DNA of 64,000 nucleotides from positions 4,032,001-4,096,000 of the forward strand of contig NC_087074.1 in NCBI RefSeq assembly GCF_026151205.1. Direction: 5' to 3'. The DNA comes from Bolinopsis microptera. Taxonomy: Eukaryota > Ctenophora > Tentaculata > Lobata > Bolinopsidae. The notes beneath the pieces were generated by a model, which ran no database searches, was not told the origin of the DNA, and saw only the letters and a list, made by a program, of their open reading frames with translations. Below are positions 22,819 through 54,548 of this stretch, piece after piece. Positions within the stretch are counted from its first letter, which is position 1. Every line of letters starts with the position of its first letter. Made by a program: the position numbers and the translations under genes.

Positions 22819-22820
22819 TA

Positions 22821-24805: not shown

Positions 24806-26423
24806 ATGGCTCCAGAAGTGGTGGTACCAGCAAATTTTGGGAAGCACCACCTGAAGTCTCGCTCACACAGTAACCTGGAACTGTTGTGTGATGAAGGAGA
24901 GATAAAGCGAGCTAATTCAATGATACTGTCTCTAAACAGCCCTGTTATAGATGATCTGATCTCTAGACTGGACATTACTTCTCTGGACGTGCAGGACTTT
25001 GGAGCCCCTGCTGTGGGGTGTTTTGTTGAATCTATGTACAGTGGAGAACTGGAGAAGTGTGATAAGAGTAACTTTAGAGACCTGAATAAGATGGGACATG
25101 TTTTCAATGTGAGCTGGTTTACAGAGAGATGTTTGGAGTACTTTACGGAGCATGTTGATATGTTGACTGGGAGGTGTTATGAGGATGTTTTGTTTGTGGT
25201 AGAGGAGGCTAGGTTTGTTGAGAGAGTCAGAAGAAGAACAACTTTACTTCTTTAGTTGAAGATAAGCTGAACACAATGAGAAATAGGAAGAGTATGTTCT
25301 TGAAGCAGTATGCTAATGACTTGGACAACTTGTCTATAAATCAACTCAAGATGGTCATCAAAATAGCTGGAACAGATGTTGGAATTCTTGTGTCAATTCT
25401 TGTAACTCATCACCAGAAAGTTGGTGCAACTATGTTAACGGAGACGTCTGGGTACCTCTTCAAAAATATTGATTTTGAGAAGTGCTTTTCAAACAACAGA
25501 TACTTTGATATTACCAATAAGCTCTTTGAAATACTTACTGATAATTCCGGTGACAACTTTAGTTTTAAAACTGCTTTGGAATCAATCACCAGATTTGCAA
25601 AAAAATCGATTACAGAGCGAAGGGCTGCAGTTGTTCATCAATATCCAATTATGGTAGATTTATCGATAAAGGATTTCTTATGTCTTGACTGGGATTCCTT
25701 AATTGAATTCCTATCACAGTCAGATAAAGTTTGTAACCTTTATCAATTTTTTGATGCAATTTATCTTTGGCTCTTTATTGCGAAGCATGAAAAGACTACC
25801 ACCTTTCCGAGAATGATTTTTACTGAAGATCATGTCAAAGATATCGTTGATATCAAAGTTGATCGATGTTGGAATCGAATATCATCAAAGTACCTTGAAG
25901 ATATAACAACGGACAGCAATTCAGGTACTGACATGCTGCTTACATCATTTATTGACTCCGATGAACTAATATGTGGTGATAATGGTATTTTGTTTAGCAG
26001 TAAAGATGAGTACACTATTGACAGGATATTTACAGAAGATCTGAAAATAATACTTGTGTCGGACGATAAAATATCTTTTTGCTCCAAGGAAACAAAATGC
26101 GCGATAATGTTGCAAAGTAGTAGGACTAATGATACAAAACCATTCTCCCTTACTATTGCACACGATTTACAGATGGGATGTGAAACTGTTCATTTCCATT
26201 ATCCTTCAGAGGCAGCACAGATCATCAGTCTATTGCTAACATTACATTCGGGAGGTCATAACATACATATACCAATTCCCTTCAATTGCCTCCCTTGTCA
26301 GATTAGGTCTGATAGATTTTGGACTTGGGGATTCAATTCATTTCAGAAAGACGGTAATTCCTCATCTGATCAATTTAGACTTGTATATGGACACGAGAAA
26401 AACATAAAAGTATCGTTTACAGG
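24806..26423 (+). pseudogene. BTB-family copy 5: one frameshift, C-terminus replaced by retroelement
   Basis: ATG 24806 opens MAPEVVVPANFGKHHLK and the BTB domain (LELLCDEGE, NSPVIDDLI, FVESMYSGELEKC, WFTERCLEYF). A net one-base loss near 25220 (gttgagagagtc against gttgaagacagtc in sister copies) causes a stop at 25253. The next frame is then open from 25276 through the whole variable region (AGTDVGILVSILVTHHQK, DRCWNRISSKYLED, LVSDDKISFCSKETKC, VHFHYP, PIPFNCLP, FWTWGF). Near 26421 the family end is replaced by retroelement sequence, and the frame runs on to 26649. With the single frameshift corrected the gene would be nearly complete, so a sequencing error is possible. The mirror partner is 52881-54548, whose variable part is only about 70% identical. 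Confidence 0.8.
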
Positions 26424-28377
26424 GTCACGAAATCCTCTCCGAACCTCCACGTGGTGTGGCCTGGTTGGCACTAACGGGTGGTGTGCTCTCTTGTTGAGTA
26501 CAAAGGTTGGGACTTGCCAACTCAAAGTTCCCATAGGAACCAGGAAGTCAACACTAACAGCTACCAAGCACCAGGAAATTTCTCTTTCAGATATCAGGTT
26601 ACAAGATAGTACACACACAAACGACGATACGTTAGACACAGATACATAGCTCTAAGAGCTATTAAATCACCAGGAAATTCTCTTTCAGCTTTCAGGTCCC
26701 ATCGAAGTCACCCACCACAGAGCTAGGGATCCCAATTCGCTCATCCTGACTACAAGGACACACTGATAATGAGTAGTCTTGGCACTTCTCCCTCCAGTAA
26801 CCACTTTTCAGGTCTTTTCAGTTAAGACAGCTAATGCGTTAGGGCTGACACACGCTAGACACAGGCTCGTGATAAGACAGTGTTAGGGATGTCAACTCTG
26901 ACTACAAGGACACACTGATAGCGAGAATTCCTGGCACTTCTTCCTCCAGTAACCACTTTTCAGGGGACCGGGTTAGCTTTGCCACACTCTTTATTGAAGT
27001 GTGACTGGACGCTCTACAATCATCTAGTAGCCAGCAGTGTTTGACTGACACCCCTACTGCAACTGGTTCTATTCAGTTCTACAGCGGAAGTTCTCAAACA
27101 CTCGAAAACAGTTCATCTCGGACATCCTGCAGAGATGCTTTTTCACAGCCTGCGCCATTACACGGGGAACCCTTAGATCTACAGTACCCTGGTGGACAGC
27201 ATAGCTCACTAAAGCATAGTGGACTTCTTTAGTACTGTGACGCAAAGCTAACCGGACCAGGAATAAACATCATTGCAATGCTTAGGGGATGCAAATAGGA
27301 CATACAACGTTTAACGATTTACTCAAAACTTTTGATTTATTTTTAAGCTCGACGATACATGGTATCATTTCAGGACAGATATTCCTTCTTCAGGTTCATT
27401 GAGGAAATTGTACCCGCTATTTGCGTTATACATGGCAAGTATCTGGACTAATGATAACTTAGGATCTCAGATTCCCAGGCTGCATTTAAAGCGCTTAACA
27501 GCACCAGTTTTAACTCCAGGTTTGTTCTGAACATCTCAGACCAACTCAACTCACTAGGTATTCTCATCGAGTAGAACTCCAGGACATGAAGGAGTATACG
27601 GTAAAGAACTAGCGGACGAATTCGCAAGGGACGATCAATCCAACAACATCCCCATAGGACCAGAACCCTTCCTCCCAATTAGGCCACACTCAGTGACAAA
27701 GGAACATTCCACTTGAGATGTTCCTCCACAAATATAAATACAGGAACTTTAATTTTTCTGGAACTCACATCAGATGGCTTACATGGTCGCTTTCAGGATA
27801 GGTCACAGCCCACTAGTTTATTTTCAGAACGTGGCAAACAACGTCAACTTCGAGATGCAAGATTGTGAACACTTTTCAGGAGAAGCAGAAACATCCCAGC
27901 ACCTCCTCTGCAAGTGCATCCAGATCATGACGTTCAGAATGAGGATAATTGGTAAACTCTACCTTAAAAACAGTAAACTACAATCATATCTTCAAATTTG
28001 TGGAACAGTCGACAAGACTGGATAGGGAAAACCCTTTTGGGTAACCTCCTAGGATTCTTCGCCAGGAACTTTCGCTAAATCCCATACTAGGAACTCAACC
28101 TAGGCCCATCTCTGCATAGAGACATATCTCCCAGGCTTTGACCTTGCTCGGAAGTCCCTTGTCTGCCCGCAGAAGTACTACAACGGAAGTGGGTTTGCTC
28201 TGAGACAGGTAGTGACAGCTTCAAGACTCCAGGGGTCTGTTGCATTGATATTTATTATTTTATGATTTCGTATATACTTTGGGAGTCCTGGCGTGCAGCT
28301 AGCAGGAGTTGCATTCTGTGGGCACGGTGAGAAGGCCTCCATCTTTTAGTAAGAGGCCAGAAACCGTTGACCAGAAC
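26421..28377 (+). mobile_element. Non-LTR retroelement remnant (RNase H and C-terminal tail)
   Basis: Inserted at the end of BTB copy 5; the right boundary is unsure. In broken frames, 27457-27560 reads SDSQAAFKALNSTSFNSRFV and a following SDQLNSLG, and 27601-27713 reads YGKELADEFARDDQSNN, the usual RNase H end block (GxxGNExAD type) of R1/Jockey-like ORF2. 27774-28025 encodes VAFRIGHSPL followed by C-x-H...CEHFSGEAETSQHLLCKC, the zinc-knuckle-like tail that follows RNase H in these elements. Stops and frameshifts make it inactive. 26640-27300 contains repeated stretches (actacaaggacacactgata at 26749 and 26909) of unknown type. Confidence 0.65.
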
Positions 28378-28396
28378 AGAGAGAGAGAGAGAGAGA
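28378..28396. repeat. GA microsatellite
   Basis: AG dinucleotides repeated about nine times. It may mark the right edge of the retroelement-derived region. Confidence 0.7.
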
Positions 28397-28853
28397 TCGT
28401 TTACAGCAATTTTTACAGGATCTAGGTGATAGGTTTTAGATCAATTTTCCCCACTTTGCATGGGTGTGTATCTATAATCACTTTAATTTTCATATCGAAG
28501 ATTATTATAGGATATTTTAATAAGCAAACATATTTCGATTTCATTATAAATTTTGAATTGTGGTCAACTTTGTATCATGTGAGTTATTGGATCAAGAGAT
28601 CGGAGGTTTGAATTAATTATAGGTGTTCTATGTTGAAGCCCTTTTTGTTCCATTTATTCACTGTAACTGATTATGCTCGTTCTGCTGAATCTGTCTGAAC
28701 TGTATCTTAATGACCAGTATCCAATCTCATGCTATACAAATAATTCAATTGTATTATGTACTAAACAGACTCTTTACTCTTAATCTAATCAAACTTCAAA
28801 TTTCAGTTCATAGTATTAACCGACTTCTTTTTAGGTGGGTAATATTCTGTAAA
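28397..28853 (+). promoter_or_regulatory. Upstream region of BTB gene 6 with 3' splice site
   Basis: AT-rich sequence. Its last 150 bases match the upstream region of other BTB copies (12960-13060, 45149-45240). It ends in a pyrimidine-rich 3' splice site, cttctttttag, at 28834, then a 19-base leader before the ATG. The same splice site and leader recur before the copies at 45148 and 49158, so a spliced 5' leader is a family property. Confidence 0.6.
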
Positions 28854-30395
28854 ATGGCTCCAGAAGTGGTGGTACCAGCAAATTTTGGGAAGCACCACCT
28901 GAAGTCTCGCTCACACAGTAACCTGGAACTGTTGTGTAATGAAGGAGAGATAAAGCGAGCTAACTCCATGATACTGTCTCTAAACAGCAGTGTTATAGAT
29001 GATCTGATCTCTAGACTGGACATTACTTCTCTGGACGTGCAGGACTTTGGAGCCCCTGCTGTGGGGTGTTTTGTTGAATCTATGTACAGTGGAGAACTGG
29101 AGAAGTGTGATAAGAGTAACTTTAGAGACCTGAATAAGATGGGACATGTTTTCAATGTGAGCTGGTTTACAGAGAGATGTTTGGAGTACTTTACGGAGCA
29201 TGTTGATATGTTGACTGGGAGGTGTTATGAGGATGTTTTGTTTGTGGTAGAGGAGGCTAGGTTTGTTGAAGACAGTCAGAAGAAGGACAACTTTACTTCT
29301 TTAGTTGAAGTTAAGCTGAACACGATGAGAAATAGAAAGAGCATGTTCCTAAAGCGATACTCTAGTGATTTAAATAGTATGTCAATCAACCAATTGAAGT
29401 TAGTTATAAAGCTAGCAGGATCTGATGTTGTTATTCTTGTTCACATACTTATGTCACACTTGCAAGCCACTGGAGCTAGTTCTTTTACAGATCTTTCGAG
29501 GTATCTGTTCAAAAATATCGATTTTAACGAATGCTTCTCGAAGAGAAGGTGGCATAGGGCCACTAATTTGCTGAATGAAATATTTATGGATCGTTTTAGT
29601 GAAGACTTCAATGCTGTTATATCTATTCTGTTCTCAAAAAGGGTTTTTGAAAAGAGTGAAATTTCTAGAAACAAGTATCCTGTCTTGGTAGACATTGAAC
29701 TTGAGAAGTATCTTCAATTGGACATCAATTCCTGTCTTGACTATTTAAGGTCTTCAGATTATGTAGATAATATTCATCAATTGTTTGATGCATTAATTAT
29801 GTGGAGGCATTTGCCGGCGAATTCCAAGGATGCGAATATTTCTGAAGCAGAAGGTATCAGTTGTGATGAAATTATCGAAGAAATTATTAATATTCAGCTA
29901 GACAGATGTTGGGGAAAGTTGTCAAGACAGTACCTTACGGCTATGTTCTGTGCAGAAAATCTTGGAATCGACACCTTCGTCAAAAGAGTACTTGTTTCCG
30001 ATCAACTATCAAGTATTGAAGGGAATGTTTTCCTCTCAACAGGGGAGACTTTTGTTTTTGATGTACTTATGACCAATAAAGTCAAATTAGTGTTGACGTC
30101 TGAAGAGAAGATTAGCAACTGTACCAAAGATTCGTTGTGTGCAATTGCCGTGCGTAATTCACCGATCATGAAATCAACTCAACACGGTGCTTATTCTGCT
30201 GAATTCTTCTTCGAGACGTGTACTGGAGAAGATGACGAAAACCGCCATTACCACGATTTCTCTGATTCACCTACAGAAGTTCATTTATTAATCGGAGTAC
30301 ACAAAGAGAAAACGGATAGCTGGGTGTATCGTCCTTTACCTTTTAATGCAAAGCCTGTATATGGGCATTTTTTTCTAAAACTTCCACTTTGGTGA
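28854..30395 (+). CDS. BTB/POZ-domain family protein, intact ORF of 513 aa
   Basis: The ATG is set by the family start MAPEVVVP and the 19-base spliced leader; the frame runs on upstream to 28710, but that part is intronic. Residues 1-120 form a BTB fold (SNLELLCNEGE, RANSMILSLNSS, GCFVESMYSGELEKC, WFTERCLEYF). Residues 120-260 are helical, BACK-like (LNTMRNRKSMFLKRY, INQLKLVIKLAGSDVV). The C-terminal half carries the family marks DRCWGKLSRQYL, LTSEEKISNCTKDSLC, RHYHDF and PLPFNAKP. It ends about 30-40 residues earlier than relatives, after GHFFLKLPLW beside a run of seven T, where a one-base slip may have occurred. BTB-BACK proteins usually act as Cullin-3 adaptors, but no Kelch repeats are present, so the substrate part is unknown. 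Confidence 0.82.
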   Translation: MAPEVVVPANFGKHHLKSRSHSNLELLCNEGEIKRANSMILSLNSSVIDDLISRLDITSLDVQDFGAPAVGCFVESMYSGELEKCDKSNFRDLNKMGHVFNVSWFTERCLEYFTEHVDMLTGRCYEDVLFVVEEARFVEDSQKKDNFTSLVEVKLNTMRNRKSMFLKRYSSDLNSMSINQLKLVIKLAGSDVVILVHILMSHLQATGASSFTDLSRYLFKNIDFNECFSKRRWHRATNLLNEIFMDRFSEDFNAVISILFSKRVFEKSEISRNKYPVLVDIELEKYLQLDINSCLDYLRSSDYVDNIHQLFDALIMWRHLPANSKDANISEAEGISCDEIIEEIINIQLDRCWGKLSRQYLTAMFCAENLGIDTFVKRVLVSDQLSSIEGNVFLSTGETFVFDVLMTNKVKLVLTSEEKISNCTKDSLCAIAVRNSPIMKSTQHGAYSAEFFFETCTGEDDENRHYHDFSDSPTEVHLLIGVHKEKTDSWVYRPLPFNAKPVYGHFFLKLPLW

Positions 30396-31983: not shown

Positions 31984-31994
31984 AAAAAAATGCC

Positions 31995-36200: not shown

Positions 36201-36754
36201 AGGTAGGTGAGCTTAGTTTTTGCACACACGCCTTCTCCTGGAGTTACTCAAGCGAGCAAGCTTCACAAGGAGTTACATTAGAACTGCAGGGTGCACTCGA
36301 CAGGTGTCAAAGGTATTACTTACTCGCTAATTCTCGAACGGTGATATGTTTGTTTCTTTGTCGAAACCTATATTACTGAGCTAGTTTACCTACACTACTG
36401 TATACCTAATACCTACAGCCCCCTCTCTTGTTTACTTATTATATAGATCCTTTAGTCCTTGCTTTTCAGTCCCATCTATCTGATACAGGAGAAAGCAGAT
36501 ACCACGACCTATAAAGGGAGGTCACCACTGTGCAGTTGTAATTTTCACACTAGCTGTCTGACTCGTTATCTAGCCACGTCTTAGTGAGTCGTTTTTACCT
36601 TGTAATTCAGCTGGTTATGCTGACAATGTTATATATATATTGTGATTGTCTAGTGCCAAAATGTTGGTAGGGTTTCGGTTTGATCGTAAATTTTTCAAAA
36701 TCAGTCCTAAGTAAATTTTGATGATAATCTGTGAACCATTCCTTTAAGTTACCG
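36201..36754. other. Unique part of palindrome left arm
   Basis: Non-repetitive sequence with its inverse at 38120-38690 (for example gcacacacgccttctcctgg near 36220 against ggagaagggcg near 38651). No gene was recognised. Confidence 0.6.
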
Positions 36755-36900
36755 CGACAATTGACCCCGATACAATGACCCCCGGACAATTGACCCCCCG
36801 GACAATTGACCCTATGTTATTACACGTGGGTCAATTGTCGCGTAAATCTAGGGGTGAGATCGACAATTGACCCCCCCGGGACAATTGGACCCCCCATGTA
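36755..36900. repeat. GACAATTGACCCC repeats, left outer block
   Basis: Repeated gacaattgaccccccg units of 15-17 bp, in both orientations, each centred on the palindrome CAATTG. Further blocks lie at 37295-37390, 37496-37585 and 37975-38115. Confidence 0.75.
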
Positions 36901-36972
36901 ATTAAACTGGGGTCATCTACGGGAATAGGGTCAGGGTCTTGGTTCAGGAATCTGGGTCAGGGTCCTGGGGTC

Positions 36973-36988
36973 AGGGTTAGGGTTAGGG

Positions 36989-37019
<31 letters not shown>

Positions 37020-37098
37020 GTAGGGTTAGGGTTAGGGTTAGGGTTAGAGGTTAGGGTTAGGGTTAGGGTTAGGGTTAGAGGTTAGGGTTAGGGTTAGG
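36973..37098 (+). repeat. Telomeric GGGTTA array, left
   Basis: About 20 near-perfect GGGTTA units in the G-rich orientation, running towards the palindrome centre. TTAGGG is the common animal telomere repeat. Together with 37790-37905 it forms the head-to-head geometry of two joined chromosome ends. Confidence 0.88.
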
Positions 37099-37278
37099 TC
37101 CTGGGTCAGGGGTCAGGGTGAGGGTTAGGGTCGGGTCAGGGTCAGGATCAGGGTCAGGGTCAGGGTCAGGGTCAGGGTCAGGGTTCAGGGTTCAGGGTAG
37201 GGTCAGGAGTAGGGTCTGGGTGCAGGGTCAGGGTCAGGGTCAGCTGGTCAGGGTCAGGGTCAGGGTCCAGGGTCAGGG
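37099..37278 (+). repeat. Variant telomere-like GGGTCA array, left
   Basis: Repeats of GGGTCA with few variants, directly following GGGTTA. It looks like a telomere-variant block, as often seen in proximal telomere regions. Confidence 0.8.
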
Positions 37279-37294
37279 TTAATTGTAATAAATT

Positions 37295-37390
37295 ATATTG
37301 TCGGGGGGTCAATTGTCGGGGGGTCAATTGTCGGGGGGTCAGTTGTCGGGGGGTCCAAATTGTCGGAGGGGTCAAATGGTCGGGGGGTCT
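37295..37390 (+). repeat. GTCAATTGTCGGGGG repeats, left inner block
   Basis: About five units of tcggggggtcaattg. It is the inverse of 37496-37585 across the centre. Confidence 0.78.
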
Positions 37391-37495
37391 ATTTGTTGTT
37401 GAACCAGCTGTTACACCTCTTTTAGGTAGCTGGTGTCATCATCTTTCTGTATCTTTACCTGATAAGTGATGGTAGGAGCATTAAGAGGGGGTGGT
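37391..37495. other. Palindrome spacer
   Basis: About 105 bases of non-repeated, non-mirrored sequence (gttgaaccagctgttacacc...) at the axis of the palindrome. It is the only asymmetric part, so it is the best target for a junction test. Confidence 0.6.
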
Positions 37496-37600
37496 GCGAC
37501 AATTGACCCCCCGACAAATGTCCCCCGACAATTGACCCCCACGACTATTGACCCCCCGGACAATTGACCCCCCGACTTTGACCCCCGACAATATAATTTA
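37496..37600 (-). repeat. GACAATTGACCCCC repeats, right inner block
   Basis: Inverse of the left inner block; several gacaattgacccccc units with small indels. Confidence 0.75.
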
Positions 37601-37610
37601 TTACAATTAA

Positions 37611-37760
37611 CCCTGACCCGACCCTGACCCTGACCGCACCCTGACCCTGACCTGACCCTGACCCTGACCCTGACCCTGTCCCTGACCCTGTCCCTGACCC
37701 TGACCCTGACCCTGACCCTGACCCTGACCCTGATCTGACCATGACCCTGACCCTAACCCC
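37611..37760 (-). repeat. CCCTGA array, right
   Basis: Inverse of the GGGTCA array at 37099-37278. A run of more than 20 CCCTGA units with variants. Confidence 0.8.
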
Positions 37761-37789
37761 TATCCTGACCAATGATCCCAGGACCCTAT

Positions 37790-37905
37790 CCCTAAACCCT
37801 AACACTAACCCTTACCCTAACCCTACCCTTACCCTAACCCTAACCCTACCCTAACCCTAACCCTAACCCTAACCTAACCCTAACCCTAAACCTAACCCTA
37901 ACCCT
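37790..37905 (-). repeat. Telomeric CCCTAA array, right
   Basis: Near-perfect CCCTAA units with a few deletions. The C-rich strand reads left to right, so the G-rich strand points at the left array. Confidence 0.88.
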
Positions 37906-37974
37906 GACCGAGACCCTGACCAGGATCTGACCAAGGACCCTGAACCTAACCCGATCGATTGACCCCAGTTTAAT

Positions 37975-41605: not shown

Positions 41606-43805
41606 TGTGGGCAGCTATTTTACTTGTTCATTGACATTTCTTGAGGATCTGGCAAGTAATCATGTCCCCATGCTACTTCTTGAGGAGGCCTTTGTTTCCT
41701 GAGTTTGGACTTACTTGGCATTAGGGCCTATTTCTCCTAAGTCGGACACTTTATGTTCCAATTTACCAACGTCAGGCCACTCTGTACAGTTCTTCCGTGT
41801 CTTCTCTTCATGTAACTTATTGCTCGGTGGGACTCTGGTTTATGATTAAATATTTATTTAATTGATTATTGGTGGATATTGTTACTTATATAATTTTAAG
41901 AATTTATGAACTTGTTTTATGAATGAAAATATATAAGGTTTTTAAATTTCTTAAAAGGAAAACTTTAAGAAAGTGAAACAAACTTGAGAGCTTTACCGCT
42001 GTTTCGTAGAGTGTTTGTCGATCAGGAACTTTTTCAGAAGTTCCAAAAATTACACACTTTACATTGATACAAATATGGATAAAACCTTGGGAATTATAAT
42101 TTGTTAGGTGTTCTATCACAGTTGAGAATCTTCACAAAAAATGTAAAGAAGTTTAAAAAAGCTAGCAAACATTTCTCAGAACTACATAAAATTTCCACAT
42201 AGAAATCTGAGAACAGCATTATAAAAAGTTAAGGAAACATATTATTATGTATAATTATAATATCTATACTATATTTTAAAATTGACGAAATTTCCCCGGC
42301 AAACGGGGACATAGAAGAAAAAACACGAAAATCGACCTCAAAATGACCCTCTGGTGAAATCAAACCCAGGCTCGCAAATGGAGTTGAAACCTCGCCATTT
42401 TAGCAGGGTTGTAGAAAAAAGGATAGCGAATAGGCTATAGCTATTCTTAGAATTTTGATTTTAGGCTTTAGATTTTTTATAATTAAGTCGGAAGTGAGGT
42501 AAATAACCGTTAGAATAATGTCGTGATTTTAGGCGAAGTTTACTTGCGCTGTTGAGTAGCAACGTTTAAAATGCACGTTGCGCGAGCAAGAACATCTTAA
42601 TACGCGCGTTGTTATGCTGTATGCTACGTCATAATTTCATAAACTGTCAAATTTACGCTTCACGTATGTACTTATATTCATAACTTTGGTTGTGATTGGT
42701 ATTTGTGATGCGGTAAAAAGTATCGTTTTGGGAATCCGAAATACTAACAACGTGTCACCATTGTTAGATAAATTCCATTAAGGTCTAAAGTAGAAACAGA
42801 GCTATATGATGAAGAGAAATTAAAAAACATAACTGATTTTTTTTAAAATTTCCTCCGAAAATGCTTTCGACTAGCGGGTTTCTAGTATATTATATAATAT
42901 ACATGTATTAATGTACAAAGTATATGATATTGAAAAGGTTATCTATAATAGAAAAGCTGTTTAAAAAATCTGCCTAACCTCTCTCTCAATCTTGTGAGGT
43001 TTAGAACGGCGCTTGTTGGGGGGAGGTGGTGGTCCTCTGAAGAGTTCCCGCTGAATCAGATGTTTGTTCTACTTTCTCTCCACCTGCTCCAAATGTTTGA
43101 TGTTTCCAGCTTCTGGTTGTGGACTTTGTTTGTGTGTTTGTTACTGCACAGTGGGTATCAAACGTCTGCATTGAGGGTTACATGACTTGTTACACGCTTG
43201 CACAATGCCACTGAGACGATAGAGAAGAGTACTGTTAGCGTAGTTGGATGAACTTTCAATACTTTCTCCATACTTTGCATTCATCGCTGACAACACATTA
43301 TCAATTTCAACTTACACAGTTTTAAAATACATATTAATTATGCTAATATTTAAACAATGATTTGAGGTTTTCAATGCTGATTATTCACTTTTTTATGTTA
43401 TATTATTGAAGAAGAAAAAAACACTAAAACGTCGTCCTTGAGATCAGGATACAGTTCCTTCAGTTTCTTTGCAACCTGGCCCAGGGCGATCTTGATGTTA
43501 ACGGGTCCTGAAAGTGCTCGATCGTGTTCATCTGCTCACCACACGGATGCACACTTGATATTGGAAGGGTCCTGGTTTACTGGTCCGATGTGTTCAGCTG
43601 GAAGTATTATTGGGTTATAATTCCATCGGTTTGGCTTTTTCAAGTTTTTTTTAAAAAGCAAGGAGTCAACCACTTTTTAGAAAAACAATTTGGTTTGATC
43701 ATATCATCATGGAATAATATTGAACTACACGATAGGAGTATCCGCCTTTATATGTGTTTGAGACTGACATGTGGGTTAAGAATCGTTGTAAGACCAAGGT
43801 TTTAC
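41606..43805. repeat. Palindrome right arm: copy of 1-2165 with broken zinc-finger exons
   Basis: Collinear with bases 1-2165 in the same orientation. 42978-43200 matches the last zinc-finger exon and 43425-43620 the exon before it, both with small indels. Near 43805 the homology ends within sequence downstream of the third zinc-finger exon, and BTB-gene sequence begins. The zinc-finger gene is thus a truncated, frame-broken 3' fragment here. Confidence 0.82.
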
Positions 43806-45148
43806 AGAACATTATCTAGACTCTTTGTGAACGTACTCTGTAACATTAACGCGCATTTTCCATCCTTTACACAAGAAGGGATTTTATTATCCGACACAAG
43901 TGTTATCTTCATATAATCTTCCGAAAAGATTCTCTCAATGGTAAGGTTTTGCTCACTACTCCCACTACTAAATAAAATACCATCAGTACATGATAGATCA
44001 TCAGAGTCAACAAGCAAGTCAACGAGCGTGATAGTACCTACAGTGGTTTTCCATGAAATAGCCTCTAGGTACTTTTTTGACATTCTATCCCAACACCGAT
44101 CCTGTTTAATATCAAGAATTTCCTTCACATGATCAATGGAAAAGTCCACCCTGGGAACGCTGATGCGGTCCCCGTTTAAAATATGTAACCACAAGAATAT
44201 TGCATCAAAGCACTGATAAAGGTTGCAAATGTTCTTTGACAATGACAAGAAATGGACTAAAGAATCCCAGTCAAGCTGAAGGAAGTCTTCTATGGGCAGA
44301 TCTACCATAATTGGATATTGATAAACAACTAAATCATTTTTATTTTCATTGGTTTTTTTGGCAAAGCAAGATATCCAACTCACTGCAGACTTAAAATCAT
44401 CATTGCAATTATCGGCTAGGATTTCAAAGAGCTTGTTGGTAATATTAAAGTACCTTTCGCTGGTAAAACTCTGCATAAAATCTATATTTCTGAACAGGTA
44501 CCTCGATGATTCAGATAAAGAGCAGGCACCAACATTCTGAAGGTGTGTTACAAGAATTGGCACAAGAATTCCAACATCAGATCCAGCTAATTTGATAACC
44601 ATCTTAAGTTGACTCATAGAAATTCTGTCCAAATCATTAGCATACTGTTTCAAGAAGATACTCTTCCTATTTCTCATCGTGTTCAGCTTATCTTCAACTA
44701 AACAAGTAAAGTTGTCCTTCTTCTGACTGTCTTCAACAAACCTAGCCTCCTCTACCACAAACAAAACATCCTCATAACACCTCCCAGTCAACATATCAAC
44801 ATGCTCCGTAAAGTACTCCAAACATCTCTCTGTAAACCAGCTCACATTGAAAACATGTCCCATCTTATTCAGGTCTCTAAAGTTACTCTTATCACACTTC
44901 TCCAGTTCTCCACTGTACATAGATTCAACAAAACACCCCACAGCAGGGGCTCCAAAGTCCTGCACGTCCAGAGAAGTAATGTCAAGTCTAGAGATCAGAT
45001 CATCTATAACAGGGCTGTTTAGAGACAGTATCATGGAGTTAGCTCGCTTTATCTCTCCTTCATCACACAACAGTTCCAGGTTACTGTGTGAGCGAGACTT
45101 CAGGTGGTGCTTCCCAAAATTTGCTGGTACCACCACTTCTGGAGCCAT
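43802..45148 (-). pseudogene. BTB-family copy 7, C-terminally truncated
   Basis: Open from ATG 45148 for 448 codons: BTB domain, BACK-like part (ISMSQLKMVIKLAGSDVGILVP) and DRCWDRMSKKYLEAI, up to VKDGKCALMLQS. It is then cut at about 43810 by the junction with the copied zinc-finger locus, so the last ~90 residues (HYHN, PIPFN, WYWGF) are missing. Otherwise it is nearly identical to the copy at 49408-50893. It carries an in-frame insertion reading DYMKI where that copy reads DMKI, shared with the noisy copy at 50898-52494. The spliced-leader-like 3' splice site lies before the ATG as in other copies. Confidence 0.8.
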
Positions 45149-45769
45149 TTTACAGAATATTACCCACCTAAAAAGAAGTTGATCAATACTATGAACTGAC
45201 ATATTATTTTGAAGTTTGATTATATCAAGAGTCTGTTTAGTATAACAATGAAATTATTTTGATAGTGTTGGGATTGGATACCAGGAATAACAATACAGTT
45301 CAGACAGGTTCAGCAGATCGATCACAATGCAATTATTACAACAAATAATTGAATAATGGAACAGGAAAACAATTTTTTGTACAAAGTTGGTAAATGATGA
45401 TATTCAAACTTGAGTATTACAACTGGTTTCTGGAAGGTTTTAAGTGCTCTGTGCTTCTTAGGTATTCAACATAGAACACTTATAACAAATTAAAACTTGA
45501 GGTCTAATGGTCCCCAATGCAAAAAATATAAATTTGATCTTTGCTTATTAAAATATCATATATAATAATAATAATCTTTGAAATGAAAATTAAAATGATT
45601 ATAGATAAACACCCATACAATCATACAATATGGGGTTATTGATCAAAGAACTATTCAGTAAAAATTGCCATAAATAATACATTTGTGTTTTACTCTCTGA
45701 TTAATTGATTAAAAAGTCCCAATTTTTTAAAAACGTACATTTGTGATAATCTTTTCAAAAACTACGAAT
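45149..45769. other. BTB spacer, left part
   Basis: Matches 12960-13570: BTB leader, then AT-rich sequence. It ends at the LINE insertion point (caaaaactacgaa). Confidence 0.6.
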
Positions 45770-47526: not shown

Positions 47527-49158
47527 TTATTTATCACTGACAACAGCATTAAATACTATCTTAGCATTCTTGTCTTGACAATAAACATAATGGCAGATAG
47601 GACCAAGACCACAAATACCGTATTTATTAAAGGAAAAGAAACCCCAGTGCCAAAATCCAGACCAAGACGGATTGATATTAAATGGAATAGGAAGAACATG
47701 TGTCTTTTTATTTTCTGATGATAAACGTATTATAAAACTAACACTTTGGTGTGCTTCTATCACGTCATGATAATGAACTTCATCATTATCTTTAACTTCT
47801 CTTTCTTGCAACACTTTGAGCGAAAATGATGTGACATCATCTTGGGAATTTATGGGTGTGGTTTGCATCATAATGGCACATTTTGTTTCTTTCTTGCAAG
47901 ATGATATCTTTTCTTCAGAAACTAGGGTTATCTTCAAATTCTCAGTCAGGACATTTTCGAATGGAAATTGCTCATTACTTGACAGATACCAGTGGTTATC
48001 ATTGCCCGATAATTCTTGACAGTCAAGGAATACTTGCCGAAGCTTAGAAGTACTCACCGAATTATCTGCTGTTAAAGCTTTAAGATATTGTACAGAGGCT
48101 TTGTTCCAACATCGATCTTCTTTAATGTTGATAATTTCCTCCAAAACTTCTTCGGGTTCAAATTTTACAGCAGTTTTAGGATCATTATCCTTCCAGAGAT
48201 GCATCCATGTGTATAGTGCATCAAAAAGGTGATGAGTGTTGGTTACTTTATCTGAAGATGAAAGAAACTCAAGACAAGTGTCTATATCATAGCAAAGGAA
48301 TTCCTTTACAGGTACATCATCTAAAACAGGGTAGTGAATCTTATCATCGTTACTGTTTACCTCTGCTAATGGTTTTGAGATAAATAGTGTTATTGCAGAC
48401 TTGAAATCTTCATTAAATTTTTCCATAAGGATATCACACAATTCAATGGTTATGCCATGAAACCTTCTTTTTGCAAAACAACATTCAAAATCAATGTTTT
48501 CAAATAGAAAACGTGACGTTTCAACAAAGGAAGTAGAACCAGTAATTTTCAGATGACGAACGAGAATATGGACGAGTATACCAACATCAGACCCAGCTAA
48601 CTTAACAACCATTTTAAGCTGGCTGATTGAAATGTTACTCAGATCATTGGAATACTGCTTCAAGAACATACTCTTCCTATTTCTCATCGTGTTCAGCTTA
48701 TCTTCAACTAAAGAAGTAAAGTTGTTCTTCTTCTGACTCTCTTCAACAAACCTAGCCTCCTCTACCACAAACAAAACATCCTCATAACACCTCCCAGTCA
48801 ACATATCAACATGCTCCGTAAAGTACTCCAAACATCTCTCTGTAAACCAGCTCACATTGAAAACATGTCCCATCTTATTCAGGTCTCTAAAGTTACTCTT
48901 ATCACACTTCTCCAGTTCTCCACTGTACATAGATTCAACAAAACACCCCACAGCACCGGCTCCAAAGTCCTGCACGTCCAGAGAAGTAATGTCAAGTCTA
49001 GAGATCAGATCATCTATAACAGAGCTGTTTAGAGACAGTATCATTGAATTAGCTCGCTTTATCTCTCCTTCATTACACAACAGTTCCAGGTTACTGTGTG
49101 AGCGAGACTTCAGGTGGTGCTTCCCAAAATTTGCTGGTACCACCACTTCTGGAGCCAT
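47527..49158 (-). CDS. BTB/POZ-domain family protein, intact full length (543 aa)
   Basis: The best family reference here: ATG 49158, stop 47527. Residues 1-120 BTB (LELLCNEGEIKRANSM, FVESMYSGELEKC, WFTERCLEYF). 120-260 BACK-like helices (ISQLKMVVKLAGSDVGILVH, RFLFENIDFECCF). 260-360 helical (VKEFLCYDIDTCLEFLSS, DRCWNKASVQYLKAL). 385-543 likely beta-rich end (HWYLSSNEQ, LVSEEKISSCKKETKCAIMM, VHYHDVIEAHQSVSF, PIPFNINPSWSGFWHWGF, DKNAKIVFNAVVSDK). It is probably a Cullin-3 adaptor-like protein; the C-terminal domain is unrecognised. A 3' splice site (ccttttag) lies about 20 bases before the ATG. Closest relatives are copies 1, 2 and 4 in the left array. Confidence 0.87.
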   Translation of the reverse strand: MAPEVVVPANFGKHHLKSRSHSNLELLCNEGEIKRANSMILSLNSSVIDDLISRLDITSLDVQDFGAGAVGCFVESMYSGELEKCDKSNFRDLNKMGHVFNVSWFTERCLEYFTEHVDMLTGRCYEDVLFVVEEARFVEESQKKNNFTSLVEDKLNTMRNRKSMFLKQYSNDLSNISISQLKMVVKLAGSDVGILVHILVRHLKITGSTSFVETSRFLFENIDFECCFAKRRFHGITIELCDILMEKFNEDFKSAITLFISKPLAEVNSNDDKIHYPVLDDVPVKEFLCYDIDTCLEFLSSSDKVTNTHHLFDALYTWMHLWKDNDPKTAVKFEPEEVLEEIINIKEDRCWNKASVQYLKALTADNSVSTSKLRQVFLDCQELSGNDNHWYLSSNEQFPFENVLTENLKITLVSEEKISSCKKETKCAIMMQTTPINSQDDVTSFSLKVLQEREVKDNDEVHYHDVIEAHQSVSFIIRLSSENKKTHVLPIPFNINPSWSGFWHWGFFSFNKYGICGLGPICHYVYCQDKNAKIVFNAVVSDK

Positions 49159-49407
49159 TTTAGAGAATTCTTTCAACCTAAAAAGGATATTATCAATATT
49201 ATTCACTACAATGTTCAACATTTAAGATATATTAAATATATAATATATAATATTAAACTATCGAAAATACCATTAATTTGATTGCATTTAAATAGAGACA
49301 TGGGCAGGCCATGTCACATACGTGTCAATTGACGTGCATAATGAAACGATTAATAAGGTACAACATAATAGGTATGTAAAATCATCAATTATTATCTTCT
49401 AACATTA
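49159..49407. promoter_or_regulatory. Short BTB spacer / promoter
   Basis: Only ~250 bp separate two BTB copies. It contains the 5' leader with its 3' splice site next to 49158, then AT-rich sequence shared with 52500-52700. Confidence 0.5.
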
Positions 49408-50893
49408 TTAGTAATTTAAACATACAATGAAGGTGATTTCAGTATTTTTCTTGTACGAATAACAAAATCTGCATGTAGGTTGATCTTCACTTTGATGTCT
49501 GTGAAATCCCCAATACCATAATCCACTAGACATAGTGCAACAAGGAGCAACATTGAATGGAATCGGAGTAACTTTCGATTCATCATCAGAATTCATTCCC
49601 ATTAATAAACCAACGATTTCTGTTCCCCCTAGAACATTATGATAATGAACATCGTCACCTGCCTCATTTTCATCCTTCACATCTTCTATTTTCAGGGAAA
49701 AATTAACAAAACCATTATCTAGACTCTTTGTAAACTTACTCTGTAACATTAACGCACATTTTCCATCCTTTACACAAGAAGGGATTTTATTATCCGACAC
49801 AAGTGTTATCTTCATATCTTCCGAAAAGATTCTCTCAATGGTAAGTTTTTGCTCACTACTCCCACTTCTAAATAAAATACCGTCAGTACATGATAGATCA
49901 TCAGAGTCAACAAGCAAGTCAACAAACGTGATAGTTCCTGTAGTGGTTTTCCATGAAATAGCCTCTAGGTACTTCTTTGACATTCTATCCCAACACCGAT
50001 CCTGTTTAATATCAAGGATTTCCTTCACATGATCAATGGAAAAGTCCACCCTGGGAACGCTGATGCGGTCCCCGTTTAAAATATGTAACCACAAGAATAT
50101 TGCATCAAAGCACTGATAAAGGTTGCAAATGTTCTCTGACAATGACAAGAAATGGACTAAAGAATCCCAGTCAAGCTGAAGGAAGTCTTCTATGGGCAGA
50201 TCTACCATAATTGGATATTGATAAACAACTAAATCATTTTTATTTTCATTGGTTTTTTTGGCAAAGCAAGATATCCAACTCACTGCAGACTTAAAATCAT
50301 CATTGCAATTATCGGCTAGAATTTCAAAGAGCTTGTTGGTAATATTAAAGTACCTTTCGCTGGTAAAACTCTGCATAAAATCTATATTTCTGAACAGGTA
50401 CCTAGATGATTCAGATAAAGAGCTGGCACCAACATTCTGAAGGTGGGTTACAAGAATTGGCACAAGAATTCCAACATCAGATCCAGCTAATTTGATAACC
50501 ATCTTGAGTTGACTCATAGAAATACTGTCCAACTCTTTAGCATAATGCTTCAGGAAAATACTCTTTTTACTTCTCATAGTATTTAGCTTATCTTCAACTA
50601 AAGAAGTAAAGTTGTCCTTCTTCTGACTCTCTTCAACAAACCTAGCCTCCTCTACCACAAACAAAACATCCTCATAACACCTCCCAGTCAACATATCAAC
50701 ATGCTCCGTAAAGTACTCCAAACATCTCTCTGTAAACCAGCTCACATTGAAAACATGTCCCATCTTATTCAGGTCTCTAAAGTTACTCTTATCACACTTC
50801 TCCAGTTCTCCACTGTACATAGATTCAACAAAACACCCCACAGCAGGGGCTCCAAAGTCCTGCACGTCCAGAGAAGTAATGTCCAGTCTAGAT
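49408..50893 (-). pseudogene. BTB-family copy 9, 5'-truncated
   Basis: Open for 485 codons from MQDFGAPAVGCFVE down to the stop at 49408, with all variable-region signatures (VHYHNVLGGTE, PIPFNVAPC, WYWGF, EITFIVCLNY). The first ~60 codons are missing: at about 50893 the BTB coding sequence switches abruptly to the 3' part of another copy, with an in-frame TGA at the join. It is nearly identical to 43802-45148 where they overlap. It could be a deletion between tandem copies or an assembly join. Confidence 0.78.
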
Positions 50894-50897
50894 CAGA

Positions 50898-52494
50898 TCC
50901 TCACTTTGATGTCTGTGAAATCCCCAATACCATAATCCACTAGACATAGTGCAACAAGGAGCAACATGAATGGAATCGGAGTAACTTTCGATCATCATCA
51001 GAATTCATTCCCTTTTAATAAACAACGATTTCTGTTCCCCCTAGAAACATTATGATAATGAACATCTTCACCTCCCTCATTTCATCCTTCACATCTCTAT
51101 TTTCCAGGGAAAAATTTAACAACAACCATTATCTAGACTCTGGGAACGGTACCTGTAACATAACGCGCATTTTCCCATCCTTTACACCAAGAAGGGATTT
51201 TATAATCCGACACAAGTGTATCTTCATATAATCTTCCGAAAAGATTCTCTCCAATGGTCAGGTTTTGCTCACTCCTACTTTCCCACTCCTAAATAAAAAT
51301 ACCACAGTACATGATAGATCATCAGAGTCAACAAGCAAGTCACGAGCGTGAATAGTAACCTACCAGTGGTATTCCATGATATAGCCTCTAGGTTACTTTT
51401 TTGAATTCTATCCCAACACGATCCTGTTTAATATCAAGAATTTCCTCACATGATCAATGGAAAAGATCCACGCCTGGGAATCGCTGATGCGGTCCCCGTT
51501 AAATATGTAACCACAAGAATATGCATCAAAGCACTGATAATGGTTGCAAATGTTCTTTGACAATGACAAGAAATTGCTAAAGAATCCCAGTCAAGCTGAA
51601 GGAAGTCTTCTATGGGCAGATCTACATAATTGGATATTGATAAACTACGAAATCATTTTTATTTTCCATGGTTTTTTTTGGCAAAGCAAGTATATCAAAC
51701 TCACTGCAGACTTAAAATCATCAATGCAATTATCGGCTAGGAATTTCAAAGAGCCTTGTTGGAATATTAAAGGTAACCTTTCGCTGGTTAAAACGCTGCA
51801 TAAAAAATCTATATTTCTGAACAGGTAACCTCGATGATTCAGATAAGAGCAGGCAAACCAACCATTCTGAAGTGTGTTACAAGAATGGGCCACAAGAATT
51901 CCAACAATCAGATCCAGCTAATTTATAACCATCTAAGTTGAAGACTCATAGAAATTCTGTCCAAAATCATTAGCATACTGTTTCAAGAAGATACTCTTCC
52001 TATTTCTCATCGGGTGTTCAGCTTATCATTCAAACTAAACAAAGTAAAGTTGTCCTTCTTCTGACTGTCATTTAACAAACCTAGCCCTCTCTACCACAAA
52101 ACAAAAACCATCCTCATAACACCTCCCATCAACATATTCCAACATGCTCCGTAAAGTACTCCCAAGCATCCCTCCTGTAAACCAGCTCACATTGAAAACA
52201 ATGTCCCATCTATTAGGACTCTAAATTTACTCTTATCACTCTTCTCCAGTTCCTCCACTGTAACATAGATTCATCAAACACCCCACAGCAGGGGCTCAAA
52301 TCCTCACGTCCAGAGAAGTAATGTCAAGTCTAGAGATCAGATCATCTATAACCGGGCTGTTTAGAGACAGTAACATGGAGTTAGCTCGCTTTATTCTCCT
52401 TCATCAACAACTGTTTCCAGTTACTGTGTGAGCGGAGACTTCAGGTGGTGCTTCCCAAAATAAATTTGCTTGGTACAACCACTTCTGGAGCCAT
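50898..52494 (-). pseudogene. BTB-family copy 10, indel-riddled
   Basis: Aligns along its length with 49487-50893 plus the N-terminal part of 43802-45148, including the latter's specific DYMKI insertion, but has a one-base indel every ~20-30 bases and no long frame. The last ~26 codons are missing at the 50895 junction. The ATG would be at 52494. The error style (dropped or doubled bases, few substitutions) looks like unpolished read sequence of the same locus as copy 7, so treat it as uncertain, not as a separate dead gene. Confidence 0.7.
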
Positions 52495-52880
52495 TCTACA
52501 GAATATTATCGACCTTAAAAGAATATCATCAATAGAATTCATTACAATGTTCAACTGTTAAGATAAATGTTAAATTATCGAAAATTTCATTAATTTTAAC
52601 CGCATTGATATGGTCAGGTCATGTTCAACATACTTTGCCCAATCAACCGACATGCATAATGAAAAGATTAATAAGGTACTAAATATGTGAAATCATCAAA
52701 TTATCTTTCTAACATTATAAATCAAATCCATAACACCAAATTGTTAACATCAAATTCGTAACATCAAATTCATAAATTCATTCATTTGAACTTACTCTAG
52801 CAATATTTTTTTTTGACATTAAGAATCTAGATACAAGAAACTAAAACCAGAATCATATGCGGAGAGGCTTCATGTAAGAC
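52495..52880. other. BTB spacer
   Basis: Similar to 49159-49400 next to the leader, then AT-rich with three short 'atcaaattc(g/a)taac' type repeats near 52730-52785. No gene. Confidence 0.5.
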
Positions 52881-54548
52881 CTATTCAGCAAAAAATGCTA
52901 GAAACTTCACTTTTGTATTTTTTGAGCGTCCATATCCAAATGCAAATTTTTCTATACCAGATTTGAATTTATTGTGTTTAATAAATGATAGAAACCCCCA
53001 ACCCCAAAATTCCTCAGAACTAACCCAATGAGGAGGGCAGTTGAAAGGAACTGGCAAAAGTATGTTAACATCTTCAGAATTAAATCTTACCAATAGACTA
53101 ATAATCTGAGTTGCTGCTGAAGGATAGTGGAAATGAACATTTTCACCTTCACATCCTATCTGTACATCGTGTGCAATCGTAAGAGAGAATGGTTTTGTTT
53201 CGTTTACCCTTGTGCTTTGTAGCATTATTGCACATTTTGTTTCTTCAGTACAAGCAGATATTTTAACGTCTGACACAAGTGTTATTTTCAGATCTTCTGT
53301 AAAAATGTTGTCAATAGTATACTCATCTTCACTGCTAAACAAGATACCATCATCACATATTAGTTCATCAGAGTCAATAAATGATTTTTGCAGTATGTCA
53401 GTACCTATTTTGGAGCAATTTAATATATCTTCAAGGTACTTAGAGGAGATTCTATCCCAACATCGATCATCTTTGATATCAACGATATCTTTGATATGAT
53501 CTTCAGTAAACTCTAATCTAGGGACACTAGAAGTATTAATATCATTCCTTGCAATATGAAGCCAAAGAAAAATTGCATCAAAGAATTGATAAAGGTTGCA
53601 AACTTTTTCTGACTGTGCTAAAAGCATAATTAATGGATCCCAGTCAAGATGAAGTAAATCTTTTACGGACAGGTCTATCATAATCGGGTAACGATTGTAC
53701 AACTGGATCCTTCTGTTCTTTATTTGATTTGTTAGCAAATCTGGAAATCCATTCCAAAGCATTTTTAAAATAAAAATGATCACCGCAATTCTCAGTAAGT
53801 ATCTCAAAGAGCTTGTGGTGATATCGCAGTAGCCCGTGTTTTGTTAAAAGCACTTCTCAAAATCTATATTTTTAAAGAGGTACCAGGTGTCCCTCTGTTA
53901 CAAGGCTGGCACCAACTTTCTGGTGATGAGTATACCAAGAAATTGGAACACAAGAATGATTCAACATCAACTCCAGCCATTTGATAACCGCCTTAAGTTG
54001 ACTCATAGAAATACTGTCCAAATCATTAGCATATTGCTTCAAGAAAATACTCTTTTTACTTCTCATTGTGTTCAGCTTATCTTCAACTAAAGAAGTAAAG
54101 TGTCCTTCTTCTGACGCTCTTCACAAATCTCTAGCCTGCCTCCTCTACCACAAACAAAACATCCTCATAACACCTCCCAGGCAACATATCAACATGCTCA
54201 GTAAAAGTACTCCAAACATCTCTCTGTAAACCAGCTCACATTGAAAACATGTCCCCACTTATTCAGGTCTCTACAGTTACTCTTATCACACTTCTCCAGT
54301 TCCTCACTGTACATAGATTCAACAAAACACCCCACAGCAGGGCCTCCAAATCCTGCCACGTCCAGAGAAGTAAAAATGTCTAGAAGTCTAGAGATCAATC
54401 ATCTATAACAGGGCTGTTTAGAGACAGATCCATGGGAATAGCTCGCTTTATCTCTCCTTCATTACACAACAGTTCCAGTTTACTGTGTGGAGCGAGACTT
54501 CAGGTGGTGCCTCCCAAAATTTGCTGGTACCACCACTTCTGGAGCCAT
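52881..54548 (-). pseudogene. BTB-family copy 11, frameshifted in N-terminal half
   Basis: The C-terminal 300 codons (53807-52881) are open: YPIMIDLSVKDLLHLDWD, DRCWDRISSKYLEDIL, LVSDVKISACTEETKC, VHFHYPS, PVPFNCPPHW, FWGWGF, NTKVKFLAFFAE. The N-terminal BTB and BACK part (54548-53700) is present with many indels. The position beside the Asterix copy makes it the partner of the gene at 24806. The change from clean to noisy sequence near 53700 coincides with the loss of frame. Confidence 0.75.

What the first reader, a model, noticed from the sequence alone, without database searches (positions are those of the whole stretch)
24806..54548. Constant-variable BTB gene family in a subtelomere-like array
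At least 11 copies share an almost identical first ~485 bases (BTB domain up to the MRNRKS block; a handful of differences between 24806 and 28854, synonymous sites included). The following ~350 codons diverge to roughly 50-70% amino-acid identity between groups while keeping fixed marks (DRCW, LVS-KIS-C, HYH, PIPFN, W-WGF). A homogenised constant 5' part joined to diversified 3' parts, in tandem arrays beside telomere-like repeats, resembles the design of diversifying systems (allorecognition, pathogen sensing, antigenic families). Gene conversion limited to the 5' part, or purifying selection on a common partner such as Cullin-3, could produce it.
Basis: partly seen in the sequence, partly recalled or inferred. 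Interest (0 to 1): 0.82.

Follow-up and report, generated by a model that had tools for sequence, protein, structure and literature searches.

The report
Shared-front, variable-tail BTB genes
A marine animal, probably a comb jelly, carries well over a hundred related genes and gene fragments, mostly in clusters, and in many clusters the front parts are kept nearly identical, apparently by copying between neighbours, while the tails drift far apart or are exchanged, as one would expect if one shared handle served many recognition ends.

Summary
Ten window copies carry the 5' part, not 11. Four (E, F, G, H) are 95-100% identical per bin over it, and the undeleted part of I is 92-100%; the other five are decayed (73-98% against E-H). 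One more copy lacks the 5' part; only H is intact. Synonymous sites are included, while 3' synonymous sites are saturated between tail classes.

The pattern recurs: 131 related loci (fragments included) on nine contigs. In same-array pairs with 3' pS>0.5, 5' pS has median 0.106 (19 pairs), against 0.744 between arrays (1659 pairs). So the BTB part is homogenised mainly within arrays. It is not universal: 5' dS is at least 3' dS in 19 of 58 same-array pairs. 5' and 3' trees conflict in one array. Upstream DNA, BTB part and tail are partly uncoupled; one array has unrelated tails (KH, FG repeats, proline-rich). In chosen young pairs omega is 0.22 in the BTB part and about 1.0 in two tail patches; two young arrays left out have constrained tails.

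Best reading: domain-limited gene conversion in an expanded, probably ctenophore, BTB family, likely Cullin-3 substrate adaptors. Function is untested. 'Subtelomeric' is not supported.

The parts
47527..49221 (-). Copy H: the only full-length open copy in the window (564 aa from the first ATG; the family-like start MAPEVVVP is at 49158). BTB and following stretch, then variable tail.
   Evidence: (PF00651 29.3 bits)
48663..49161 (-). Constant block of H against F (changepoint -3 to +495)
28710..30395 (+). Copy F: open to 30395, ends about 40 residues before H; tail class of its own; start codon 28854
43802..45202 (-). Copy G: 5' part 99% like F and upstream homologous to F (77% over 191 nt), but tail of the G/I/J class, ending early
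24776..26424 (+). Copy E: start 24806; constant block near-identical to H/F/G although the frame breaks near 25222
49429..50902 (-). Copy I: start region deleted; remaining 5' part 98-100% like E-H in two bins, 92-93% in the next; tail 92-100% like G to nt ~1350
51522..52555 (-). Copy J: decayed, tail class G/I/J, cut short
52881..54557 (-). Copy K: decayed; counterpart of E in the large inverted duplication; start 54548
6961..8629 (-). Copy A: decayed, tail class H
9113..10746 (-). Copy B: decayed, tail class H
11317..13016 (-). Copy C: decayed, tail class E/K; upstream 87% like G over 244 nt
13910..14656 (-). Copy D: 3' half only, tail class H
15719..26411 (.). Left arm of an old inverted duplication (two main pieces 84-89% identical to 52909-63221), including copy E
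52909..63221 (.). Right arm of the inverted duplication, including copy K
36927..37921 (.). Two opposed degenerate telomere-like arrays (TTAGGG/AGGGTC to 37281, CCCTAA/GACCCT from 37610) inside opposed minisatellites (33305-36205 / 38683-41599); not part of the gene family

Best explanation
This is one decaying cluster of a large family of single-coding-exon BTB genes (131 loci found, fragments included) in an animal that is probably a ctenophore. SHOWN: in many arrays the N-terminal module (BTB domain and what follows; about 85-270 codons by array and pair, further in some young pairs) has been homogenised between copies, while upstream regions and C-terminal parts often follow other histories, so genes are mosaics. 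INFERRED mechanism: ectopic gene conversion and unequal recombination act where copies still match, which is the part kept alike by purifying selection on the protein (omega about 0.2). Upstream DNA and tails have often diverged too far to be converted, so the process reinforces itself. INFERRED function: the constant module binds a common partner (most likely Cullin-3, as in many BTB adaptors) and the tail recognises diverse targets. The family would then be a germline repertoire of E3 substrate adaptors, plausibly in defence against intracellular parasites or mobile elements.
For: Same-array 5' pS median 0.106 (0.010-0.342) in 19 pairs whose 3' pS exceeds 0.5, against between-array 5' pS median 0.744 in 1659 pairs. 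5' tree: 14 of 14 arrays each one clade; 3' tree: 13 of 14 (46 of 61 sequences used). Tree conflict: array C8, AU p 0.0016 (5' data against the 3' grouping) and 0.0058 (3' data against the 5' grouping); array C3_19.2, p 0.012 (5') and 0.023 (3' DNA). Block edges: 5' edge within 40 nt of the start codon in 63 of 78 analysed pairs of 13 arrays. Mosaics: L017/L018 tails 94% alike with no upstream match; L021/L023, L006/L007, L076/L077 and window F/G upstream alike with mostly different tails. Unrelated tails on one N-terminal module in array C10: KH (PF00013, 2.9e-6), FG repeats (PF13634, 3.8e-23), proline-rich repeats seen by eye. Omega by region in 12 disjoint young pairs: 0.22 (22-178), 0.54 (179-379), 1.02 (380-409), 0.33 (410-499), 1.00 (500-end). 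PF00651 over its cut-off in 19 of 20 family proteins scanned. 131 loci from four capped searches.
Against: 5' dS equals or exceeds 3' dS in 19 of 58 same-array pairs: C2_8.5 6 of 6, C2_4.85 3 of 3, C3_1.6 7 of 10, C8_15.2 2 of 3, C8_4.0 1 of 6. Some recent copies lie in different places: 41 of 1700 between-array pairs have 3' pS of 0.5 or less, and between-array 5' pS goes down to 0.05, so likeness is not strictly per array. The edge at the start codon is not general: array C3_1.6 was not given, and upstream of it and of its dispersed copies is 76-97% alike. The AU groups were chosen after the tree was seen, which makes those p values too favourable; the C3_19.2 conflict is not significant with 3' proteins (p 0.115). 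Omega near 1 is not positive selection (Fisher p 0.52, 0.54), and the pairs were picked by me: young arrays C2_4.85 and C8_15 with tail omega 0.18 and 0.13 were left out. Some upstream mismatches could be insertions. No binding, expression or polymorphism data. Tail fold unknown (pLDDT about 40).
Confidence: 0.55

Rival explanations
1. Same gene conversion, but no recognition repertoire: ordinary birth-and-death of a tandem family. The BTB part is homogenised passively because it is conserved, and tails drift under relaxed constraint.
For: Tail omega near 1 without excess over 1; tails constrained in two young arrays; many decayed copies (9 of 10 5'-bearing window copies are not full open genes by comparison with H); 19 of 58 same-array pairs show no 5'/3' contrast.
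Against: Constraint in the tail is patterned (0.33 between two patches near 1.0). Most listed loci outside the window are open over 500 codons. Tails are whole different domains in array C10.
Confidence: 0.3
2. The family works as BTB scaffolds or regulators (oligomerising chromatin or RNA-binding proteins) rather than as ubiquitin adaptors; the tails bind nucleic acid or nuclear pores.
For: KH and FG-repeat tails in array C10; BTB domains also serve non-Cullin roles (established knowledge).
Against: Among the 20 family proteins scanned, KH and FG tails were seen only in that one array; other tails match no Pfam model over its cut-off.
Confidence: 0.15
3. Nucleotide-level purifying selection (overlapping code, RNA element) keeps the 5' part identical without conversion.
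For: None beyond the near-identity itself.
Against: Between arrays 5' synonymous sites are as diverged as 3' ones (median pS 0.741 against 0.720, 1700 pairs); trees conflict; broken copies E and I are nearly as alike as open ones.
Confidence: 0.02
4. Assembly artefact: haplotypes or collapsed repeats joined wrongly.
For: The window contains a large inverted duplication and opposed telomere-like arrays, a shape that misjoins can produce.
Against: Near-identical 5' parts sit between distinct upstream and 3' sequence, and the pattern recurs in arrays on other contigs. Reads were not available, so re-assembly was not tested.
Confidence: 0.03

Closest known systems
MATH-BTB substrate adaptors of Cullin-3 (grass and nematode expansions)
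   Same: Lineage-expanded BTB family in which BTB binds CUL3 and a less conserved domain takes varied substrates (starts of the abstracts of PMC6883508 and PMC3519589 in the search listing; not opened). The nematode expansion and its adaptive evolution (Thomas 2006) are recalled, not read.
   Different: Here BTB is N-terminal, no MATH domain is detected, and the BTB part is homogenised within arrays.
Domain-restricted concerted evolution of mammalian MHC class I genes (European badger, PMC3434948, abstract and outline read)
   Same: One domain pair homogenised by recombination while another keeps diversity under selection; domains have separate histories.
   Different: Different proteins. There the evidence includes positive selection and cross-species groups; here only one genome was available.
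PEX1 BTB-LRR family of Protochlamydia (PMC4209131, passages read)
   Same: 73 paralogues, nearly all with N-terminal BTB and a C-terminal interaction part, in the ubiquitin theme.
   Different: Bacterial; LRR tails; its authors found no convincing evidence that recombination played a major role.
KLHL (BTB-BACK-Kelch) proteins
   Same: N-terminal BTB and a C-terminal domain, similar length (architecture recalled).
   Different: No BACK or Kelch match at the thresholds used; tail beta-rich only in models of very low confidence.

Membership tests
BTB/POZ domain proteins (PF00651) | Match over Pfam's gathering score | tested here: met
   19 of 20 family proteins scanned (2 of 3 window, 10 of 10, 7 of 7); the miss is I, whose 5' part is deleted
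MATH-BTB adaptors | MATH domain present, N-terminal to BTB | tested here: not met
   No MATH match in 20 proteins at E up to 0.5, 1 and 0.1
KLHL proteins | BACK and Kelch repeats after BTB | tested here: not met
   No BACK or Kelch match in 20 proteins
Chlamydial PEX1-type BTB-LRR | C-terminal leucine-rich repeats | tested here: not met
   No LRR match in 20 proteins
Cullin-3 substrate adaptors | BTB binds Cullin-3; tail binds a substrate that is ubiquitinated | not testable with these tools
   Needs binding assays; nearest solved chain by sequence to the N-terminal part of L003 is SLX4 at E 0.2
Domain-restricted concerted evolution | Low synonymous divergence in one domain within arrays, saturated in another, with conflicting trees | tested here: met
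   not in every array (19 of 58 pairs without the contrast)
Allorecognition or antigen-variation systems | Extreme polymorphism between individuals or expression switching | not testable with these tools
   One genome only; no reads or expression
Subtelomeric array | Lies next to a chromosome end | tested here: not met
   4.03-4.10 Mb inside a 21.28-Mb contig; 6 contig ends read (C3 and C1 both ends, C2 and C8 starts) show no TTAGGG arrays, so true ends may be missing

The most novel reading that the evidence does not exclude
The homogenised BTB module is itself the recombination hub of the family: because copies in an array keep the same ~250-800 bases, exchanges inside it join different upstream control regions to different tails, including unrelated domains such as KH or FG repeats. 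The animal would thus generate new pairings of expression and recognition in the germline, a modular degradation-adaptor repertoire in an early-branching animal lineage.
Probability: 0.25. Interest if true: 0.8.

Novelty: new variant of a known kind. Interest (0 to 1): 0.6.

Why it matters
Expanded ubiquitin-adaptor families are known from plants and nematodes, and domain-limited homogenisation from MHC class I. Finding both features together in a family of some 131 loci in a probable ctenophore, with upstream regions and tails re-paired around a constant front, would make intracellular recognition in an early-branching animal lineage directly testable. It would also offer a natural system for how conversion tracts come to be confined to one domain. 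I found no report of this family: the search for ctenophore papers with BTB expansion returned none, the listing of 10 of 16 papers for Mnemiopsis, BTB and gene families showed none by title and abstract start (of these only PMC4209131 and PMC4327156 were looked into, by passages), and the word BTB does not occur in the main text of three ctenophore papers (PMC11797021, PMC11184263, PMC12221973). Most subscription papers are not in that library.

Tried and rejected
Structure: AlphaFold2 of H with 7 window sequences (pLDDT 41) and of its tail with 11 window sequences (pLDDT 40) are too weak to search by fold, so no fold search was run. A profile of 42 family members found no relative among solved structures (best E 0.49, Mediator 29); the N-terminal 180 residues of L003 gave SLX4 at E 0.2.

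Organism: no COX1 match (this does not show absence); the rRNA search failed. The ctenophore reading rests on size and karyotype: 264.65 Mb and 232 contigs here against 265 Mb, 13 chromosomes and 346 scaffolds for Bolinopsis microptera (table passage of PMC11797021; passages of PMC10232365); homeobox matches on contigs C1-C13 plus C27; no zf-C4 match. The tool warns that the zf-C4 result does not show absence, and the lack of classic nuclear receptors in ctenophores is recalled. It is an inference.

Rejected: nucleotide constraint; a 3' block edge fixed at one codon (it varies from +254 to about +810 and beyond); positive selection as proven; subtelomeric place; telomere motif confirmed at contig ends (not found at 6 ends). 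cDNA-templated conversion was considered for the edge at the start codon; it is not excluded, but divergence of upstream DNA explains the edge without it.

Dropped before counts: L005, L016 and L031 (no frame of 400 codons); 15 of 61 sequences not in the trees; arrays C2_5.5, C11_13.4, C8_15 and C3_1.6 not given to the changepoint script and 12 of 15 C10 pairs not parsed by it; arrays C2_4.85 and C8_15 not pooled in the omega windows. The two clusters C8:3.88 and C8:4.0 Mb were taken as one array and as two. In one search the start anchors of the window copies A, B, C, G and J were off by a few to some tens of bases, and L031 gave no result.

Literature searches with nothing directly on point.
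Full report
WHAT IS THERE. A blastn/tblastn search with the intact copy H (47527-49221, minus strand) finds ten places in the window with the 5' part and one (D) with the 3' half only. In a multiple alignment E, F, G and H are 95-100% identical in the 100-nt bins over nt 50-550 from the first ATG of H. The remaining part of I is 98-100% alike in two bins, 92-93% in the next, and 82-85% in the bin at its deletion edge. The other five copies (A, B, C, J, K) carry many small insertions and deletions and are 73-98% alike to E-H in these bins, lower among themselves. After nt ~550 identity falls, mostly to 45-75%, between tail classes H/A/B/D, G/I/J, C/E/K and F, but stays high within the cleanest class (G and I 92-100% up to nt ~1350).

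HOMOGENISED, NOT MERELY CONSERVED. Between H, F, G and I the 5' part has pS 0.010-0.052 while the 3' part is saturated (0.73-0.76) in the five pairs with different tail classes. From the first genome search I fetched 59 of 65 non-window loci (60 stretches, one a duplicate). 57 gave reading frames of at least 400 codons, and with four window copies this makes 61 sequences. For same-array pairs with 3' pS above 0.5 (19 pairs) the 5' pS has median 0.106, range 0.010-0.342. For different places (1659 pairs with 3' pS above 0.5) it has median 0.744, range 0.337-0.976. So synonymous sites of the BTB part are free to vary and do vary between arrays; they are alike mainly inside an array: concerted evolution.

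AGAINST A UNIVERSAL RULE. In 19 of 58 same-array pairs the 5' dS equals or exceeds the 3' dS (C2_8.5 6 of 6, C2_4.85 3 of 3, C3_1.6 7 of 10, C8_15.2 2 of 3, C8_4.0 1 of 6), so the contrast belongs to arrays with old or exchanged tails. In 41 of 1700 pairs from different places 3' pS is 0.5 or less, and between-place 5' pS goes down to 0.05: some recent copies have moved. At low tail divergence (3' pN under 0.1) the 5' pS medians are close, 0.097 within (30 pairs) and 0.153 between (12 pairs).

TREES AND MOSAICS. In a 5' tree of 46 sequences 14 of 14 arrays are single clades; in the 3' tree 13 of 14 are (the C8 clusters at 3.88 and 4.0 Mb are taken as one array). In that C8 array the 3' grouping L019/L020/L023 is rejected by the 5' part (AU p 0.0016) and the 5' grouping L020/L021/L023 is rejected by the 3' part (p 0.0058). 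In array C3_19.2 the tail of L001 goes with another contig's array (3' DNA p 0.023, 5' p 0.012), though 3' proteins do not reject a single clade (p 0.115). These groups were chosen after seeing the trees, so the p values are somewhat too favourable. Upstream ~200-250 nt, 5' part and tail can be uncoupled. L017/L018 have tails 94% alike over 821 nt but no upstream match. L021/L023 (88% over 210 nt), L006/L007 (95% over 197 nt), L076/L077 (90% over 250 nt) and window F/G (77% over 191 nt) share upstream DNA but not most of the tail. F and G lie at roughly mirrored places, so a tail may have been exchanged in one of them after the inverted duplication. E lies in the left arm and K in the right; the arms' main pieces are 84-89% identical. 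E is 91% like its counterpart K in the 5' part but 99% like G and H over 419 nt: the homogenisation is younger than the duplication.

BLOCK EDGES. A two-state changepoint fit from -200 to +900 puts the 5' edge of the high-identity block within 40 nt of the start codon in 63 of 78 analysed pairs of 13 arrays (12 further pairs of array C10 were not parsed; four arrays were not given to the script). The 3' edge varies from +254 (L077) through +482 to +523 (window) to about +810 (C10), and reaches the end of the analysed stretch in some young pairs. Several upstream comparisons are no better than shuffled sequence where the coding part is over 90% alike (for example L017/L018), but in array C3_1.6 and its dispersed copies, not, upstream DNA is 76-97% alike. 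I read the edge as conversion confined to what still matches, the coding module under protein constraint. Copying through a cDNA is not excluded.

THE FAMILY. Four protein searches of the genome, each limited to about 80 scored places, give 332 matches that merge into 131 loci on nine contigs (C1-C6, C8, C10, C11); 103 loci lie in 28 clusters of two or more, and 28 are single (coordinates). The searches are capped, so more may exist; some entries are fragments or decayed copies. Most listed matches outside the window have open frames of over 500 codons. In array C10 (12.56-12.58 Mb) the N-terminal ~270-290 residues are shared (pS 0.00-0.31 in the first six 40-codon windows) and the tails are unrelated: KH domain in L062 (PF00013, E 2.9e-6; below cut-off in L064), FG repeats in L065 (PF13634, E 3.8e-23), proline-rich repeats in L061 and L063 by eye.

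SELECTION. In 12 disjoint young pairs omega is 0.22 (bootstrap 0.16-0.30) for residues 22-178, 0.54 for 179-379, 1.02 (0.71-1.57) for 380-409, 0.33 (0.24-0.44) for 410-499 and 1.00 (0.84-1.19) for 500-end. Pooling more pairs, from eight groups, gave 1.19 for 380-409 and 0.97-1.53 from residue 500 on. Two tail patches thus evolve about as fast as silent sites around a constrained segment, which fits loops on a kept fold that are diversified or free. Excess over 1 is not shown (Fisher p 0.52 and 0.54). I left out two young arrays, C2_4.85 and C8_15, whose tails are constrained (omega 0.18 and 0.13), so fast tails are not general.

DOMAINS. Apart from array C10, only BTB (PF00651) passes its cut-off in the family proteins scanned; BTB does so in 19 of 20. 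No MATH, BACK, Kelch or LRR model matched. Structure predictions from window sequences alone failed (pLDDT about 40), so the tail fold is unknown. Profile and single-sequence searches of solved structures found nothing firm.

ORGANISM. Size and contigs (264.65 Mb, 232 contigs), homeobox matches on C1-C13 plus C27 and no zf-C4 match (weak) fit a ctenophore with n = 13. Bolinopsis microptera is given as 265 Mb and 13 chromosomes (table passage of PMC11797021; passages of PMC10232365). This is inferred; no marker gene was read.

HOW IT MOST LIKELY WORKS. Shown: an N-terminal module homogenised within many arrays, diverged or unrelated tails, uncoupled upstream regions. Inferred: conversion and unequal exchange in the matching module. 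Inferred from knowledge of BTB proteins: the module docks on Cullin-3 and perhaps dimerises, and the tail picks the target. Defence is the likeliest pressure by analogy with nematode MATH-BTB and F-box families (recalled), but gamete recognition or plain birth-and-death are open. The nearest evolutionary precedent is MHC class I, where one part is homogenised and another kept diverse (PMC3434948, abstract). The nearest architectural ones are MATH-BTB (abstract starts) and chlamydial PEX1 (passages). It is not a member of either family by the tests made here.

Noticed in passing
window 33305-41599, centre near 37450: Palindromic structure: two opposed minisatellites (about 43-nt unit) around two opposed degenerate TTAGGG-like arrays with a GACAATTGACCCCC-type spacer, 4 Mb inside a contig. 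It could be an old telomere-to-telomere fusion, a fold-back element or a misjoin. Six contig ends read carry no telomere array to compare with.
   Followed up: partly
window 15719-26411 and 52909-63221: Large inverted duplication, main pieces 84-89% identical. The left arm has open frames for a PCI-domain protein (17731-18927, PF01399) and an 805-aa coiled-coil-like protein (19416-21833). The right arm has no open frame of 150 aa or more between 53.8 and 62.9 kb, so its copies look decayed.
   Followed up: partly
C10:12560730-12584600 (L061-L066): BTB module joined to KH, FG-repeat or proline-rich tails in one array: domain replacement behind a shared front.
   Followed up: yes
window 32040-32660: Dispersed repeat, about 92% identical in at least 40 places over the genome.
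   Followed up: partly
window 46151-47170: 339-aa open frame that looks like a non-LTR retrotransposon ORF1 (recalled resemblance; no Pfam match), between copies G and H.
   Followed up: no
C9:1549413-1563968 and C4:15747925-15955173: Runs of homeobox matches with equal scores (five on C9, four on C4), suggesting recent homeobox gene copies.
   Followed up: no
C3:4016300-4020300 (L080): Two more BTB matches 12-15 kb left of the window, closer to another branch of the family; one open frame of 301 aa with a short tail was read.
   Followed up: partly
window copies A, B, C, J, K: The decayed copies carry many short insertions, some of which look like tiny tandem duplications (alignment), an unusual style of decay.
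   Followed up: no
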